DNA of 64,000 nt from assembly GCF_011682175.1 (NCBI RefSeq), contig NZ_WHJG01000031.1, positions 1-64,000 of the forward strand. Direction: 5' to 3'. A program made the position numbers and the translations under genes. This stretch comes from Massilia frigida (lineage in GTDB: Bacteria > Pseudomonadota > Gammaproteobacteria > Burkholderiales > Burkholderiaceae_D). This document shows, piece after piece, positions 3,282-52,086 of this stretch. Positions within the stretch are counted from its first letter, which is position 1; every line of letters starts with the position of its first letter. Below the pieces are notes generated by a model. That model searched no databases and had not been told where the DNA came from. It was given only the letters and a program-made list of their open reading frames with translations.

Positions 3282-6200
3282 ATGTTGTTATGAACCTGTT
3301 CGGCAGCGTGGCCGGTGTCGTCTTCGGTCGTCAGCTGTGGATATTTTTTGGCCTGCTTGCCTTGTGCTGCATGGTCTGGCTGCTCGGGCCGATCATCGCC
3401 ATCGGCCAGATGCGCCCACTGGAGAGCGAACTGGCGCGTTGGTGCGTGATCGGCCTGGTGTTTGCCATCTGGCTGCTGCGCGCGCTGTACCGCAACTGGC
3501 GCGCGGCCCGTCTGAACTCCCAGCTGCTGCGGCAAATCCGCACGCCCACCGCACGCGCCAATGCCGCGCCAGTCGCTGCCAACCCGCACCTGGATGAACT
3601 CAGCCAGCGCTTCCAGGACGCGTCCGAAAAGCTGCGCACGGCCAGGTTTGCCACCGACGCTGGCCAGGGCAAGCTGGCTTTCCTGCAGCGGTTCTCGGGC
3701 CAGTATCTGTATCAGCTACCGTGGTACGTCTTCATCGGCGCGCCCGGCTCCGGCAAGACCACGGCGCTGGTCAATGCCGGCCTGGAATTTCCGCTGGCTG
3801 AACAATTTGGCAAAGCCGCCATTCGCGGCATCGGCGGCACCCGCAACTGCGACTGGTGGTTCACCAATGAAGCGGTGCTGATCGACACGGCCGGCCGCTA
3901 CACCATGCAAGAGAGTCATCGTGAACACGACCAGGGCGAATGGCAGGGGTTTGTCGACCTCCTCAAGAAATTCCGGCCGCGCCAGCCACTGAACGGCGCC
4001 ATTCTCACCATCAGCATCGCCGATCTGCTCGGCAGCAGCGAGCAGGAACGCGCGCTGCATGCGCTCACCTTGCGCAAGCGCCTGCACGAACTGCGCGATC
4101 AGCTCGGCATTCAATTCCCGGTCTACGTCCTGATCACCAAGGTCGATCTGCTGGCCGGTTTTACCGAATATTTTGCGCAGCTGAGCAAGGAACAGCGCAG
4201 CCAGGTATGGGGCCTGACCTTCAAGCTGGACGCCGTGCGCGATAGCAGCTTCGATGTGCCCGGCGCTTTTTCAGCGCAGTACAAGCAACTGCTGGAACGC
4301 CTGTATGCCAGCCTGCCCGAGCAACTGCTGGCCGAGCACGACCCGCGCCAGCGCGAACTGGCCTACCTGCTGCCGCAGGAATTTGCCGGGCTGGAGGGCA
4401 TCCTGAGCGAGTTCCTGGCGCACGTCTTCGTCTCGTCCAAATTCGAGTCGAATGCCTTGCTGCGCGGCGTGTACTTTACCAGCGGCACCCAGGAAGGCAC
4501 CGTGTTCGACCGGGTCCTCGGCGGCATCAAGAACTTCTTGCAGATCAATACCGGCCAGCGTTCGCCGCAGATCGGCGAACCCGGCCGCAGCTTCTTTCTG
4601 CGCAGCTTATTGCAAGACATCATTTTCAAGGAAGCCGGCCTGGCTGGCATCAATGAACGCTGGCAGAAGAAGCAAACCTGGCTGCGCGCAGCCGGCTATG
4701 CCGCCACCGCCGTGCTGGCGATCGCGATCTCGCTCGCATGGCTGAATAGCTACCGCGCCAACCAGGCTTACGTCAACGATGTCGCAGCGCGCCTGCCGGC
4801 GCTTGAAAAACGCCTCGGGGCAGTAAAACTGAGCGACCGTGAACAGATCACCACCGTCATGCCGATGCTCGACGCCTTGCACGCCGTGCCCGTCAGCACT
4901 GTGCTCGACGTGGAACATCCAGCGCTGGGTTACCAGTTGGGCCTGTATCAGGGCGGCAAACTGCAAGCGGCGTCCACCCGCGCTTACGAACGGGCGCTGG
5001 ACGACATGTTTCTGCCGCAACTGGCGCGCCGCCTGGAAGACAGCCTGCGCCAGGCCCCGAGCGGCGACGTGGAACTGAGCTACAACGCGCTCAAGGTATA
5101 TCTGATGCTGTTCGACCAGGCGCATTACGACGCCGATTTCCTTCAAGCGTGGCTATCGCTGGACCTGGAACGTCAATTGGGCAAAGCCCTGTCAAACACC
5201 CAGCGCGACGAACTGCGCGCCCATCTGAAGCGCTTGCTTGCGCAACGGATCGTTGCGTCACCGTTTGCGATCGATGAGCCACTGGTGGCGCAAACACGTG
5301 AACGGCTGCTCACGCATACCCTGGCACAACGCGCCTACGGTTCCATGAAGCGCATGCTGCAAGGCAACAAGCAACTGCCGACGTTCAATGTTGGCACCGT
5401 GGTCGGTCCGCAGGCACCGCTGGTGTTTCGGCGCGCCAGTGGCGCCAGCCTGAATCAGGGCGTGGCCGGCTTGTACAGCTATCGCGGTTACTGGGAACTG
5501 TTCGCTCCCGGCCTGGACGCGCGCGTCGCCAAGCTGGCGGAAGAAGAGAAATGGGTCCTGGCCCAGCCAACAAGCGCGCCGGCGCGCGGCGATCACCTGG
5601 CCGCGTGGAGCGCCGAGGTACGCCGCCTGTACCTGACCGACTATATTCGCGTGTGGGAAGACTATCTGGGCGACCTGCGCCTGAAGACGGGCGGCACCCT
5701 GGCCCAGAACATCCAGGTCGCGCGCATCCTGTCGTCCACCGATTCACCGCTGGTGCGCGTCATGAACGCCGCAGCCAGGGAAACCACGCTGGTGCGCCTT
5801 GACGAGATCAACGGCGCCACCATCGTCGACAAGGCCAGAGACAAACTCGACAGCACGCGCTCGTCCCTGAGCCAGATCTTTGGCCAAAGCGAGCTGGCCA
5901 GCGGCAAGCCGGAGGCGGCCGCCGCGGAACGCGTGGAAATGCTGGTCGATACGCGCTTCGCCGCGCTGCGCGAATTTACGACAGCGCGCGCAGAAGGCAG
6001 CAAGGCCCCTATCGAAGGCATTGTCGAGACCATCGGCGAGCTGTACGCCCAGTTGACCGCCACCGAAACCGCGCTGCGCGACGGCGCCACGCCGCCACCG
6101 AATCAAGTGCTCAGCAAAATCCTGGCCGAAGCCGGCCGCCTGCCGACCCCGTTTCGCGGCATGCTGGGCGAACTGGCCAATTCGTCCGGCAACAACGTGA

Positions 6201-6904
6201 CCCAGGTGCTGCAACAGCAGCTTGGCAAGAATGTGGCCGCCAACGTGGGCCACTACTGCCAGCAAAGCGTGGCTGGCCGCTACCCGTTCGTGCGCGGCTC
6301 CTCGCGTGACATGGCGCTTGGCGACTTTGCCCAACTCTTTGCGCCCGGCGCCCTGATGGACGAGTTTTTCCAGAAGAACCTGGCAAACCAGGTTGACACG
6401 GCAGTACGGCCATGGCGCTTCAAGGGCGAACAGAAGGCCCGTGCCGGCTACCTCGATTCCTTTGAGCAGGCAGTCGTGATCCGTGATGTGTATTTCGCTG
6501 GCGGCGCCCGTACGCCCACCATCCGGCTCGATATCAAGCCGGTCCGGATGGACGCTTCCATCGCCCAGTTTGTCATCGACATCGACGGCCAGGCAGTGCG
6601 CTACGCCCACGGTCCGCAAGTGTCGACGCCGGTTCAATGGCCGGGCCCGGCAGGCCGCAACCAGGTGCGCGTGCAGCTTACCGGCAGCAACGGCAGCAGT
6701 GCTTCCCTGATGACCGAAGGCGCCTGGGCGCTGCACCGCATGTTCGACCGCGCCAGCCTGGCGCCACAGCGCGACGCGGAAAAAATGCTGGCAACCTTCG
6801 ACGTCAACGGCGCCAAAGCCGTGTTCGAAGTGACCGCCAGCAGTGCGCGCAACCCGTTCCGCCTGGCCCAGCTGGCCAGCTTTTCCTGCCCGGGAGGGGT
6901 GTGA
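3278..6904 (+). CDS. tssM: T6SS membrane subunit TssM (IcmF/VasK)
   Basis: At 1208 aa this is the large inner-membrane component that spans to TssJ. Two transmembrane helices lie within the first 70 residues. The cytoplasmic domain has a Walker A motif GAPGSGKTT near residue 154 and a Walker B-like VLIDTAGRY. A third transmembrane helix is near residue 470 (AATAVLAIAISLAWLN), followed by the long periplasmic IcmF-related region and the C-terminal beta domain. The intact P-loop suggests nucleotide binding, which varies among TssM proteins. It overlaps tssL by 4 nt, and its last base is the A of the tagF ATG. Confidence 0.96.
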   Translation: MNVVMNLFGSVAGVVFGRQLWIFFGLLALCCMVWLLGPIIAIGQMRPLESELARWCVIGLVFAIWLLRALYRNWRAARLNSQLLRQIRTPTARANAAPVAANPHLDELSQRFQDASEKLRTARFATDAGQGKLAFLQRFSGQYLYQLPWYVFIGAPGSGKTTALVNAGLEFPLAEQFGKAAIRGIGGTRNCDWWFTNEAVLIDTAGRYTMQESHREHDQGEWQGFVDLLKKFRPRQPLNGAILTISIADLLGSSEQERALHALTLRKRLHELRDQLGIQFPVYVLITKVDLLAGFTEYFAQLSKEQRSQVWGLTFKLDAVRDSSFDVPGAFSAQYKQLLERLYASLPEQLLAEHDPRQRELAYLLPQEFAGLEGILSEFLAHVFVSSKFESNALLRGVYFTSGTQEGTVFDRVLGGIKNFLQINTGQRSPQIGEPGRSFFLRSLLQDIIFKEAGLAGINERWQKKQTWLRAAGYAATAVLAIAISLAWLNSYRANQAYVNDVAARLPALEKRLGAVKLSDREQITTVMPMLDALHAVPVSTVLDVEHPALGYQLGLYQGGKLQAASTRAYERALDDMFLPQLARRLEDSLRQAPSGDVELSYNALKVYLMLFDQAHYDADFLQAWLSLDLERQLGKALSNTQRDELRAHLKRLLAQRIVASPFAIDEPLVAQTRERLLTHTLAQRAYGSMKRMLQGNKQLPTFNVGTVVGPQAPLVFRRASGASLNQGVAGLYSYRGYWELFAPGLDARVAKLAEEEKWVLAQPTSAPARGDHLAAWSAEVRRLYLTDYIRVWEDYLGDLRLKTGGTLAQNIQVARILSSTDSPLVRVMNAAARETTLVRLDEINGATIVDKARDKLDSTRSSLSQIFGQSELASGKPEAAAAERVEMLVDTRFAALREFTTARAEGSKAPIEGIVETIGELYAQLTATETALRDGATPPPNQVLSKILAEAGRLPTPFRGMLGELANSSGNNVTQVLQQQLGKNVAANVGHYCQQSVAGRYPFVRGSSRDMALGDFAQLFAPGALMDEFFQKNLANQVDTAVRPWRFKGEQKARAGYLDSFEQAVVIRDVYFAGGARTPTIRLDIKPVRMDASIAQFVIDIDGQAVRYAHGPQVSTPVQWPGPAGRNQVRVQLTGSNGSSASLMTEGAWALHRMFDRASLAPQRDAEKMLATFDVNGAKAVFEVTASSARNPFRLAQLASFSCPGGV

Positions 6905-49751: not shown

Positions 49752-50219
49752 ATGAACCACGCCCTGATCCGCCGCCTGCTCGCCATCGCACTGACCACGG
49801 TTTTTGCGAGTGCACAAGCACAACAGCCCGAGGCGACGCCGCAGGAACTCGCCGACCTTGAGAGCGCCGCGCCAAATCTGGTCGCCGCTATCGAATGCAA
49901 AAGAAAGCTGGTCTATTCGGATGCGGTAAAGGCGTTCGTCAAGGATCCGAACAGCTTCGAGAACATTATCCTGCCGGCGCCCGTGAGCATTTTCGGACTC
50001 AGGACCGTGGTGATCGGTGTGACCGAAGACGATGGTAACGGGGGCGGCGGCTACGTTGCCAAGTTCAGCAACGTGTCGCTGAAAGAAGTCGCCAAGGCGG
50101 CCAGGGTCAAGGCGCCGTCCTATAAACGCGTCGTCAAGGGTGGCGGCATGATCGAAGTGGGCAGCGAAGACAATGAAACGGTCTACATCACCTGCGTGCG
50201 CGGCGCCAGCGACGACTGA
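49752..50219 (+). CDS. Small exported protein of unknown function
   Basis: This 155-aa protein has a clear signal peptide (LLAIALTTVFASAQA|QQ). The mature domain has two Cys and the conserved-looking KAFVKDPNSFENIILPAPVSIFG and a Gly-rich turn DDGNGGGGYVAKF. Its 3' end overlaps the convergent gluconokinase gene by 37 nt. Direct repeats TGTGACG (49654 and 49679 regions) lie upstream. Confidence 0.65.
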   Translation: MNHALIRRLLAIALTTVFASAQAQQPEATPQELADLESAAPNLVAAIECKRKLVYSDAVKAFVKDPNSFENIILPAPVSIFGLRTVVIGVTEDDGNGGGGYVAKFSNVSLKEVAKAARVKAPSYKRVVKGGGMIEVGSEDNETVYITCVRGASDD

Positions 50220-50734
50220 TGTCGCGCCCTCAGGCGCACGCCACGCCACCCCCGCCCGAGAATGCGCGCGAGCTGCTGCGCGGGCGCGATGCCGATGTCG
50301 AGGACCACGCCGGCTTCGTCGGCCTGCAGTGGTTCGAGGTCGCGCAACTGGCTCTCGAGCAGCGATGGCGGCATGTAGTGACCGGCGCGCGCGCGCATGC
50401 GCCCGGCGATCAGTTCGCGCGCACCGTCCAGGTGGACGAAGCGCAGCGCCGGATCGCCCTGGCGCAACAGGTCGCGGTAGCGCCGCTTGAGCGCCGAGCA
50501 CGACACGACCAGGCCGGCACCGCGTGCGCGGGCCTCGCCAATCTGCTCTTGCAGCGTTCCCAGCCAGCCGGCCCGGTCGTGATCGTCGAGCGCGATGCCG
50601 GCGGACATCTTGGCAACATTCGCGGCCGGATGAAACTGGTCGCCCTCCACAAACGGCACACCGAGCGCATGCGCCAGGGCTTGCCCGAGCGTGCTCTTGC
50701 CGCAACCGCTCACCCCCATCACCACCCAGCGCAT
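50183..50734 (-). CDS. gntK: Gluconokinase
   Basis: This 183-aa P-loop kinase has Walker A VMGVSGCGKST, EGDQFHPAANVAKMSAGIALDDHDRAGWL and SCSALKRRYRDLLR, all hallmarks of the GntK/IdnK family. It phosphorylates gluconate to 6-phosphogluconate. Start at 50734 gives the family N-terminus MRWVVMGVSG; an ATG at 50767 would add 11 residues. Neither has a strong ribosome site. The 3' end overlaps the convergent exported-protein gene by 37 nt, an unusual tail-to-tail overlap. Palindromic LacI-type operators lie upstream. Confidence 0.9.
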   Translation of the reverse strand: MRWVVMGVSGCGKSTLGQALAHALGVPFVEGDQFHPAANVAKMSAGIALDDHDRAGWLGTLQEQIGEARARGAGLVVSCSALKRRYRDLLRQGDPALRFVHLDGARELIAGRMRARAGHYMPPSLLESQLRDLEPLQADEAGVVLDIGIAPAQQLARILGRGWRGVRLRARHQSSLAPRTQVM

Positions 50735-50785
50735 CGCCTTGCCGTGCTTGCCGTCCGCATTGATCATTTTGCTGCCCAGGTAACA

Positions 50786-50797
50786 GTTAGCGCTAAC
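50786..50797. promoter_or_regulatory. Palindromic LacI-family-type operator GTTAGCGCTAAC
   Basis: A perfect 12-bp palindrome with central GCGC, 50 bp upstream of gntK. It resembles GntR/LacI-family operators that control gluconate genes. Confidence 0.6.
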
Positions 50798-50843: not shown

Positions 50844-50918
50844 TGCTCCCGAACGCAATTGCCGCCCTCCTTGTCCAGGCCAAACGCTGTCGCGATCTCC
50901 CTAGTTGTAAACAAATTC

Positions 50919-50927
50919 TGTGGATAA
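50919..50927 (-). promoter_or_regulatory. DnaA box 1 (TTATCCACA)
   Basis: Exact match to the strong E. coli-type DnaA box consensus on the - strand, copy 1 of the 130-bp repeat. Confidence 0.75.
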
Positions 50928-51048
50928 GTGTGTTAACAAGCGCCGCGTGAGCGCGCCAAGCCATTGCTTTTAAAGGGAAAACTACCCATTGCGTGCTTTT
51001 TTGGCAGTGTGGGCAGGCGAGCCATCACGGCAAGTTGCAAACAGAATC

Positions 51049-51057
51049 TGTGGATAA
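51049..51057 (-). promoter_or_regulatory. DnaA box 2 (TTATCCACA)
   Basis: Exact consensus match, 130 bp after box 1, in copy 2 of the repeat. Confidence 0.75.
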
Positions 51058-51178
51058 GTTTGTTAACAAGCTCGCCCGCCCTGCCCTAAGTCCTTGTTTA
51101 TGAACGAAAGAATGCCGCTGCGCGCTTTTCAGGCAGGGTGGGAAGAAGATGTTTCGAGTACAACTTGCAAACAGAAAC

Positions 51179-51187
51179 TGTGGATAA
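51179..51187 (-). promoter_or_regulatory. DnaA box 3 (TTATCCACA)
   Basis: Exact consensus match, 130 bp after box 2, in copy 3 of the repeat. Confidence 0.75.
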
Positions 51188-51270
51188 GTTTGTTAACAAG
51201 CCGGGCGCACGCGCGCTAAGTCCTTGCTTTCAAACACAAATATGCGCGTGCGTGCTTTTCGGGCAGCGCT

Positions 51271-52086
51271 TCAGTTTGCCAACTGCAAGGGCAACACCGG
51301 ACCGACTGTCATCCCGCCTGCCTTGATGGCGGCGTTGAGCGTATCGATGCGGTCCTGCATGGCCGGATGCGAGGCCGCGTGATGGGACAAGCCGGCGAAG
51401 GCTTGGTCCTCGTCCTTGAGGGCGGCAAACAGCTCGGTGGCGCCGCCGGCGTGGCCGTAGCGGCAGTTCAGGATGCGCAGGGCCGCGGCATCGGCGGCGG
51501 CTTCGCGCGTGCGCGAATAGCGCGCCTGCCCCAGCTGATTGACGGGCGCCAGCAGGTCGCTCAGGCCCGAGTCGCTCCCCGTCAACAGCGTCGATATTCC
51601 GAACAGCACGATGCCGCGTCCCATCGCCCGCAAATGGTCGCGCTGGGTGATGTGCGCCAGTTCGTGCGCCAGCACGAAGGCCAGCCCGTTCTCCGAGCGT
51701 ACCTGCCCCAGCAAGGCGCTGAAGACGATGATATTGCCGCCCGGGACCACCGCCGCGTTGGGCGTGTCCGACTTGGCCAGGCTGACCTTGGCCGGCAGGC
51801 GCAGGCCGGCGCAGCTGCGCATGCTGTCGACCAGGGCCTGCAGCTGCACCTGCTGCGCCTGTTCGGCGGGGGCGGTGTCCATCACCTGCGCCGGCAGCAG
51901 CGCATACAGGCGCGCCTCGCTTTCGTGGCTGAGCCGGTCGACCACGGCGTCGACCGCCAGCCCGAGCAGCCAGAACAGCAGCACCGTGCCCGCCAGCAGC
52001 CAGCCCGCGATGACGGCGAAGTCCTTCAAGGGGTGCTCGGTCGACACATTGTCGTTATGTTCGGGCAGCGAGGGCTGGTATCTCAT
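51271..52086 (-). CDS. M48-family membrane metalloprotease
   Basis: This 271-aa zinc protease has an N-terminal transmembrane helix (about 22-48) and the HELAH zinc motif at 141-145 with the following TQRDHLRAMGRG. The third ligand Glu is in SRTREAAADAAAL. The domain faces the periplasm or cytoplasm depending on topology. It is the last gene of a unit with two YbjQ-type genes and may act in envelope quality control. Confidence 0.88.
   Translation of the reverse strand: MRYQPSLPEHNDNVSTEHPLKDFAVIAGWLLAGTVLLFWLLGLAVDAVVDRLSHESEARLYALLPAQVMDTAPAEQAQQVQLQALVDSMRSCAGLRLPAKVSLAKSDTPNAAVVPGGNIIVFSALLGQVRSENGLAFVLAHELAHITQRDHLRAMGRGIVLFGISTLLTGSDSGLSDLLAPVNQLGQARYSRTREAAADAAALRILNCRYGHAGGATELFAALKDEDQAFAGLSHHAASHPAMQDRIDTLNAAIKAGGMTVGPVLPLQLAN

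What the first reader, a model, noticed from the sequence alone, without database searches (positions are those of the whole stretch)
50903..51270. Tandem 130-bp repeat array with three perfect DnaA boxes between gntK and an M48 protease gene
Three copies of TTATCCACA (- strand), the strongest DnaA box sequence, occur exactly 130 bp apart, each embedded in a conserved block with a TTGTTAACAA-type palindrome and flanking CAAAC/GTTTG arms. A 9-mer is expected less than once per 64 kb by chance. Exact spacing and absence of a gene suggest a DnaA-binding array comparable in principle to datA or DARS loci, or a secondary origin-like element. It could also be a dispersed genomic repeat.
Basis: partly seen in the sequence, partly recalled or inferred. 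Interest (0 to 1): 0.78.

Follow-up and report, generated by a model that had tools for sequence, protein, structure and literature searches.

The report
Tandem mini-DARS2 array for DnaA
Between two ordinary genes of a bacterium lies a row of three DNA units laid out like E. coli's site for recharging DnaA, the protein that starts chromosome copying; longer rows of related units sit beside another gene in the relatives checked, which hints at a copy-number-tuned replication control.

Summary
In detail: three 130-bp units, each with a perfect DnaA box. Each unit has three box-like 9-mers (box I +, 5 bp, box II -, 3 bp, box III -), an IHF-like 13-mer 38 bp from box II and a Fis-like 15-mer at 71 bp. 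Orientation and both core spacings equal those of the E. coli DARS1 and DARS2 cores; core, IHF, Fis is the DARS2 order in shorter form. The IHF-like site is at +38 in 78 of 78 units tested. The gntK array is in 7 of 17 genus genomes (Massilia). Related arrays of 4-9 units lie between xseA and a MotA/ExbB-family gene in 6 genera checked. A unit model hits 373 of 392 family genomes, 41 of 44 genera. The xseA array lies 0.22-0.29 of the chromosome from the inferred oriC in 24 of 26 genomes. DnaA, Hda, IHF and a Fis-like protein are encoded. Best reading: DARS2-type units in tandem, a new variant of a known kind. Binding and activity are untested; the outer boxes at gntK are weak. The datA/DARS idea was right in direction, 'secondary origin' unsupported.

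The parts
50905..50939 (+). Unit 1 core: box I TTGTAAACA (50905-50913, +), 5 bp, box II (50919-50927, -), 3 bp, box III TTGTTAACA (50931-50939, -)
50957..50969 (+). Unit 1 IHF-like 13-mer CAAGCCATTGCTT (8 of 9 consensus positions)
50991..51005 (+). Unit 1 Fis-like 15-mer GCGTGCTTTTTTGGC, at +72 because of one extra base
51035..51069 (+). Unit 2 core: boxes I (51035-51043), II (51049-51057), III (51061-51069)
51087..51099 (+). Unit 2 IHF-like 13-mer TAAGTCCTTGTTT (8 of 9)
51120..51134 (+). Unit 2 Fis-like 15-mer GCGCGCTTTTCAGGC
51165..51199 (+). Unit 3 core: boxes I (51165-51173), II (51179-51187), III (51191-51199)
51217..51229 (+). Unit 3 IHF-like 13-mer TAAGTCCTTGCTT (8 of 9)
51250..51264 (+). 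Unit 3 Fis-like 15-mer GCGTGCTTTTCGGGC
50183..50767 (-). gntK, gluconokinase; found beside the array in 7 of 7 genomes that have it
51271..52086 (-). M48 metalloprotease gene; found near the array in 6 of 7 (not in the 3 kb read of G002; about 0.6 kb further off in G003)

Best explanation
The array is a tandem set of compact DARS2-type units. In each, three DnaA molecules bind: those on boxes I and II head-to-head, the one on box III in line with box II. IHF bends the DNA at +38 and a Fis-like protein binds at +71, which brings the DnaA molecules into the contact that makes ADP-DnaA release its ADP; freed DnaA takes up ATP and can start replication at oriC. Tandem copies raise capacity, and the array beside gntK is a lineage-specific addition to the xseA array. 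Shown here: layout, conservation, distribution, presence of the genes. Inferred from sequence: binding by DnaA, IHF and Fis. Inferred by analogy with E. coli: ADP release.
For: Core geometry equals E. coli DARS1 and DARS2 as read from MG1655; a review says both DARS cores share spacing with box I opposed to II and III (PMC5742627, passages), another that head-to-head I/II is characteristic and essential (PMC10380432, passages). Model R1, built from 42 units of the window's genus, has its best hit in the DARS2 and in the DARS1 locus on the core, in register, but weakly (E 0.034 and 0.05). IHF-like 13-mer: unique best window at +38 in 78 of 78 units, shuffles mean 0.7, most 4. Fis-like G...C 15-mer at +71 in 70 of 78, mean 4.8 over 83 offsets. 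DARS2 order: IHF-like sites at +79 and +95, Fis pattern at +131. Among 16 gntK units boxes I, II, III are 92, 100, 100% identical, the 17-bp spacer 48%. Units in 373 of 392 family genomes. xseA array 0.22-0.29 from the inferred oriC in 24 of 26. IhfA, IhfB, Hda over cut-offs; DnaA.
Against: No binding or nucleotide-exchange data. Outer boxes at gntK are weak (box I 6-7 of 9, box III 7 of 9, the free fifth position counted as a match; E. coli 8 of 9). All 16 gntK units score 8 of 9, not 9, for IHF. Only 22 of 78 units fit all 7 Fis positions, and +71/+72 is among the best Fis windows in 61 of 78. The Fis-like protein is just under its cut-off (118.3 against 122), and papers call Fis conserved among gamma-proteobacteria related to E. 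coli. A second partial hit in the DARS2 locus scores nearly as well with R1 (E 0.062). A review says DARS2 core-IHF-Fis distances are highly conserved in E. coli-proximal beta- or gamma-proteobacteria; here they differ (+38, +71). The gntK array was not found in 10 of 17 genus genomes, and lies about 0.33 and 0.47 from oriC in the two finished genomes that have it. G016 and G255 depart for the xseA array (0.07, 0.17).
Confidence: 0.7

Rival explanations
1. datA-type or titration site: the units bind DnaA to inactivate or sequester it (with IHF), so the array delays initiation.
For: Strong DnaA boxes with IHF-like sites; datA also pairs boxes with an IHF site (PMC5742627, passages). Several box clusters per genome could titrate DnaA (inference).
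Against: Essential datA boxes all point the same way; here box I is opposed, with DARS spacing, in the 42 units aligned.
Confidence: 0.17
2. Transcription control: DnaA with IHF and Fis at the array regulates gntK, or xseA and its divergent neighbour, tying them to the replication state.
For: The array begins 138 bp upstream of the gntK start and stays with gntK in 7 of 7; the xseA array lies between divergent genes, upstream of both.
Against: Unrelated genes at the two places; two lone units in Janthinobacterium sp. CG3 lie in a stretch without gntK, M48, xseA or exbB-like matches; a palindrome that looks like an operator lies nearer gntK (50786-50797); the one sigma-70-like hit is outside the units. 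Transcription was not measured.
Confidence: 0.08
3. Tandem small-RNA genes or another RNA element.
For: Some units hold GC-rich inverted repeats followed by T runs (my reading); one terminator-like hit at 51252-51269.
Against: 0 of 9 predicted pairs have a compensatory change over 42 units; best Rfam match 20.5 bits against a gathering score of 59; promoter and terminator counts near the shuffle means.
Confidence: 0.02
4. Mobile or plasmid-derived iterons left in the chromosome.
For: Iteron-like look; lone related units elsewhere in Janthinobacterium sp. CG3.
Against: No blastn match at E 1e-5 in 72,556 plasmid or 50,697 phage records; same xseA position in the 6 genera checked.
Confidence: 0.02

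Closest known systems
E. coli DARS2 (DnaA-reactivating sequence 2)
   Same: Three-box core with the same orientation and 5/3-bp spacing; then IHF-like site, then Fis-like site in the same order. Position: DARS2 is about 0.2 of the chromosome from oriC (oriC coordinate recalled; locus), near the 0.22-0.29 of the xseA array.
   Different: Compact (IHF +38, Fis +71 against +79, +131); 2-3 units at gntK and 4-9 at xseA in the loci read; other neighbours; weaker outer boxes; activity untested.
E. coli DARS1
   Same: Same core geometry.
   Different: Single core; no IHF-like site of 8 or 9 between +21 and +119; needs no protein factors by PMC4585315 (passage).
E. coli datA
   Same: DnaA boxes plus an IHF site.
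   Different: Essential boxes share one direction (PMC5742627, passage); here box I is opposed.
DnaA-box clusters of Bacillus subtilis and Streptomyces coelicolor
   Same: Non-coding DnaA-box clusters outside oriC.
   Different: Said to repress untimely initiation (PMC4585315 and PMC5742627, passages); their sequences were not compared here.

Membership tests
DARS | Core of three DnaA boxes, box I opposed to II and III, spacing as in DARS1 and DARS2 | tested here: met
   Units were picked by boxes II and III, so box III's place is partly by selection; box I was not used. Unselected check: of 30 perfect boxes, core offsets are filled in array and C222 sites (box I 6 of 10, box III 7 of 10 at score 7 or more), in lone boxes box I 2 of 16, box III 0 of 16
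DARS | Each core box close to the DnaA box consensus | tested here: inconclusive
   box II 9 of 9; box I 6-7 and III 7 at gntK; 7-8 and 6-7 at the 4 xseA units with perfect box II; E. coli outer boxes 8
DARS2 | IHF then Fis site downstream of the core at fixed distance | tested here: met
   by sequence only, at distances other than E. coli's
DARS2 | Host encodes IHF and Fis | tested here: inconclusive
   IhfA and IhfB over cut-off; Fis-like protein full length but 118.3 bits against cut-off 122
DARS | Stimulates ADP release from ADP-DnaA; deletion delays initiation | not testable with these tools
   needs biochemistry and genetics
DARS2 | Conserved chromosomal position | tested here: inconclusive
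   xseA array 24 of 26 at 0.22-0.29 (genomes related, gene order shared); gntK array about 0.33 and 0.47 in two
datA | Essential boxes in one direction with an IHF site | tested here: not met
oriC / secondary origin | GC-skew switch at the site | tested here: not met
   G002 only
oriC / secondary origin | AT-rich unwinding element | not tested
   only base composition seen

The most novel reading that the evidence does not exclude
Most of a large beta-proteobacterial family controls DnaA with a tandem hub of compact DARS2 units at a mid-replichore site beside xseA, and single lineages add further arrays (here at gntK) to tune initiation; DnaA recharging by DARS would then be a general, copy-number-tunable device.
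Probability: 0.55. Interest if true: 0.85.

Novelty: new variant of a known kind. Interest (0 to 1): 0.72.

Why it matters
DARS function has, to my knowledge, been worked out in E. coli with its two single-copy loci. A roughly 100-bp unit with the DARS core and built-in IHF- and Fis-like sites, repeated in tandem and detected in 41 of 44 genera of a family, gives a natural experiment on how number and position of DnaA-recharging sites set initiation timing, and a minimal DNA for the mechanism. Review passages say DARS-like sequences exist in other proteobacteria; the passages seen describe no tandem arrays.

Tried and rejected
Dispersed repeat: not supported. RNA element: no covariation, no Rfam match near threshold. 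Plasmid or phage origin: no match. Secondary origin: origin candidate elsewhere. Constant distance of the gntK array from oriC: not seen in the two finished genomes; G016's skew samples are uneven, so inversion or assembly error is possible.

Limits. One search picked 78 units by box II (TGTGGAYAA) and by the 9-mer at box III ending CA, or starting TGT and ending CAA; one G016 gntK unit and one G013 xseA unit seen were dropped by it, and units with another box II were not looked for. A1/R1 used 42 of these units chosen by hand. In one search at most 9 candidates per genome were scored, so unit counts are lower bounds. xseA context was checked only where places were listed: 25 of 26 non-gntK loci and 17 of 17 xseA-array stretches had both xseA and exbB-like matches, 6 of 44 genera in all; an eighteenth stretch, the lone-unit site of G215, had neither. 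Position test: 26 of the 27 genomes (G012 left out, array place not listed); places were typed into the script; 7 of 26 genome lengths are rounded to 0.1 Mb and G033 uses one contig; genomes of one genus are not independent. A first run with more rounded lengths gave median 0.233 and the same 24 of 26. Absence from print rests in an open-licence library; the 2009 DARS paper was not seen.

Full report
Observation. The window holds three TTATCCACA boxes on the - strand at 50919, 51049 and 51179; 0.13 are expected and 0 of 100 shuffles reach three. They sit in three diverged 130-bp units between gntK and an M48 protease gene, both on the - strand. The genome (7.79 Mb, 255 contigs) has 33 perfect boxes and, by a 22-base pattern with up to 3 mismatches, no gntK-type unit beyond these three.

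Anatomy of a unit. Reading from box II (TGTGGATAA on the + strand), a box-like 9-mer in the opposite direction lies 5 bp upstream (box I) and one in the same direction 3 bp downstream (box III). The 42 units aligned keep TT...ACA of box I (its first T in at least 90%), TGTGGA.AA of box II and TGT...CAA of box III. A 13-mer near the IHF consensus (WATCAANNNNTTR as quoted in PMC4585315, passage) is best of 55 offsets at exactly +38 in 78 of 78 units; shuffling gives a mean of 0.7 units and at most 4 in 200 rounds. The 78 were chosen by boxes II and III, not by box I or IHF. A 15-mer with G first and C last stands at +71 in 70 of 78 units, against a mean of 4.8 over 83 offsets; the fuller Fis pattern that I scored (GNNYRNNWNNYRNNC, recalled) is met in all 7 positions by 22 units and in 6 by 26. 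Among 16 gntK units pairwise identity is 92% in box I, 100% in II and III, 85% in the IHF site, 75% in the Fis-like stretch, 72% in the 5-bp spacer, 61% in the IHF-Fis spacer, 48% in the 17-bp spacer and 40% downstream. The Fis-like stretch is uneven: 96% among 6 last units, 63% among 7 first units.

Match to DARS. I read the MG1655 regions that I recalled as DARS1 (bioD-uvrB) and DARS2 (rppH-mutH). DARS1 is TTATCCACT, 5 bp, TGTGGATAA, 3 bp, TGTGTATTA; DARS2 is TTATTCACC, 5 bp, TGTGGATAG, 3 bp, TGTGAAGAA. Orientation and both spacings equal those of the units. In DARS2, IHF-like sites (8 of 9) come at +79 and, in the other direction, +95, 3 bp apart as PMC4245941 reports for IBS1-2 (passage); a Fis pattern stands at +131; further IHF-like (+421, +496) and Fis-like (+485) hits lie far downstream. 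R1, built without E. coli sequence, has its best hit in each locus on the core in register, at E 0.034 and 0.05 only, and a partial hit elsewhere in the DARS2 locus is nearly as good (E 0.062). As an unselected check, 30 of the 33 perfect boxes of the genome were read: at 10 array or C222 sites box I scores 7 or more at the core offset in 6 and box III in 7; at 16 lone boxes 2 and 0; at 4 oriC boxes 0 and 1.

Where it occurs. A 21-base pattern with up to 2 mismatches matches 13 of 17 genus genomes; the tandem array is in 7 (G000, G002, G003, G004, G007, G009, G016), with 2-3 units 129-130 bp apart. gntK is beside it in 7 of 7, the M48 gene near it in 6 of 7. Named holders of a stricter pattern are Massilia rubra, M. 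atriviolacea, M. mucilaginosa and M. aquatica, and Janthinobacterium sp. CG3, which has two related lone units 2.2 kb apart elsewhere. The xseA array is the wider one: here six units lie between xseA and a MotA/TolQ/ExbB-family gene on C189. A family scan found units at E 1e-4 in 373 of 392 genomes and 41 of 44 genera. Of 30 loci fetched from it, 4 are the gntK array; of the other 26, 25 have xseA and exbB-like matches and 1 the exbB-like match alone; 17 of 17 further xseA-array stretches have both. These cover 6 genera, with 4-9 units in the stretches read. The unit matrix gave no hit of 15 bits or more in 40 sampled 20-kb stretches of G002 and G016.

Origin and position. A 681-bp region on C186 with five TGTGGAYAA boxes matches 17 of 17 genus genomes; in finished G002 it lies at 1.786 Mb, where sampled GC skew turns from negative to positive between 1.1 and 2.2 Mb (noisily) and back between 5.2 and 5.6 Mb. 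I take it as oriC. No dnaA match lies within about 10 kb of it in G002. The xseA array lies at a median of 0.236 of the chromosome from this locus, 0.22-0.29 in 24 of 26 genomes; G016 (0.07) and G255 (0.17) depart. xseA was verified at the array in these 26 (9, 17).

Proteins. DnaA, Hda, IhfA and IhfB (over curated cut-offs) and a 77-aa Fis-like protein (full-length match, 118.3 bits, cut-off 122) are encoded. Hda implies that DnaA is inactivated as in E. coli, so that recharging would be useful (inference).

Mechanism and verdict. Passages on E. coli hold that head-to-head DnaA on boxes I and II releases ADP, with box III helping and IHF and Fis activating DARS2 (PMC10380432, PMC5742627). By anatomy the units should work likewise; this is inference. 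datA is less likely because box I is opposed. The gntK units, with weaker outer boxes and imperfect IHF sites, may be weaker or tuned differently. Filing: works like DARS2; sequence-level features met or inconclusive, biochemistry untested; tandem and compact form a new variant. Review passages already say DARS-like sequences are found in many proteobacteria, and DARS2 spacings in E. coli-proximal beta or gamma species, so presence outside E. coli is not new; tandem arrays were not found in the searches made.

Noticed in passing
L049 (C222) about 3800 and 7250: Two sites 3.4 kb apart with direct strong boxes and a DARS-like core, on either side of a UvrD-family helicase gene; paired boxes at like spacing also in G002.
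   Followed up: partly
L188 (C211) 3600-4150: DnaA-box cluster with IHF-like motifs upstream of priA (NCBIfam); similar cluster about 0.27 Mb from the inferred oriC in G002 and 0.19 Mb in G013. A possible datA-like candidate.
   Followed up: partly
L047 (C186) 5650-6330: The inferred oriC seems to have two similar halves with TAGTAGT-type stretches and boxes (my reading), and dnaA lies on another contig.
   Followed up: partly
50786-50797: Palindrome GTTAGCGCTAAC just upstream of gntK, also seen in the six relatives printed; looks like a LacI-family operator (recalled).
   Followed up: no
Suggests that units can be copied elsewhere.
   Followed up: partly
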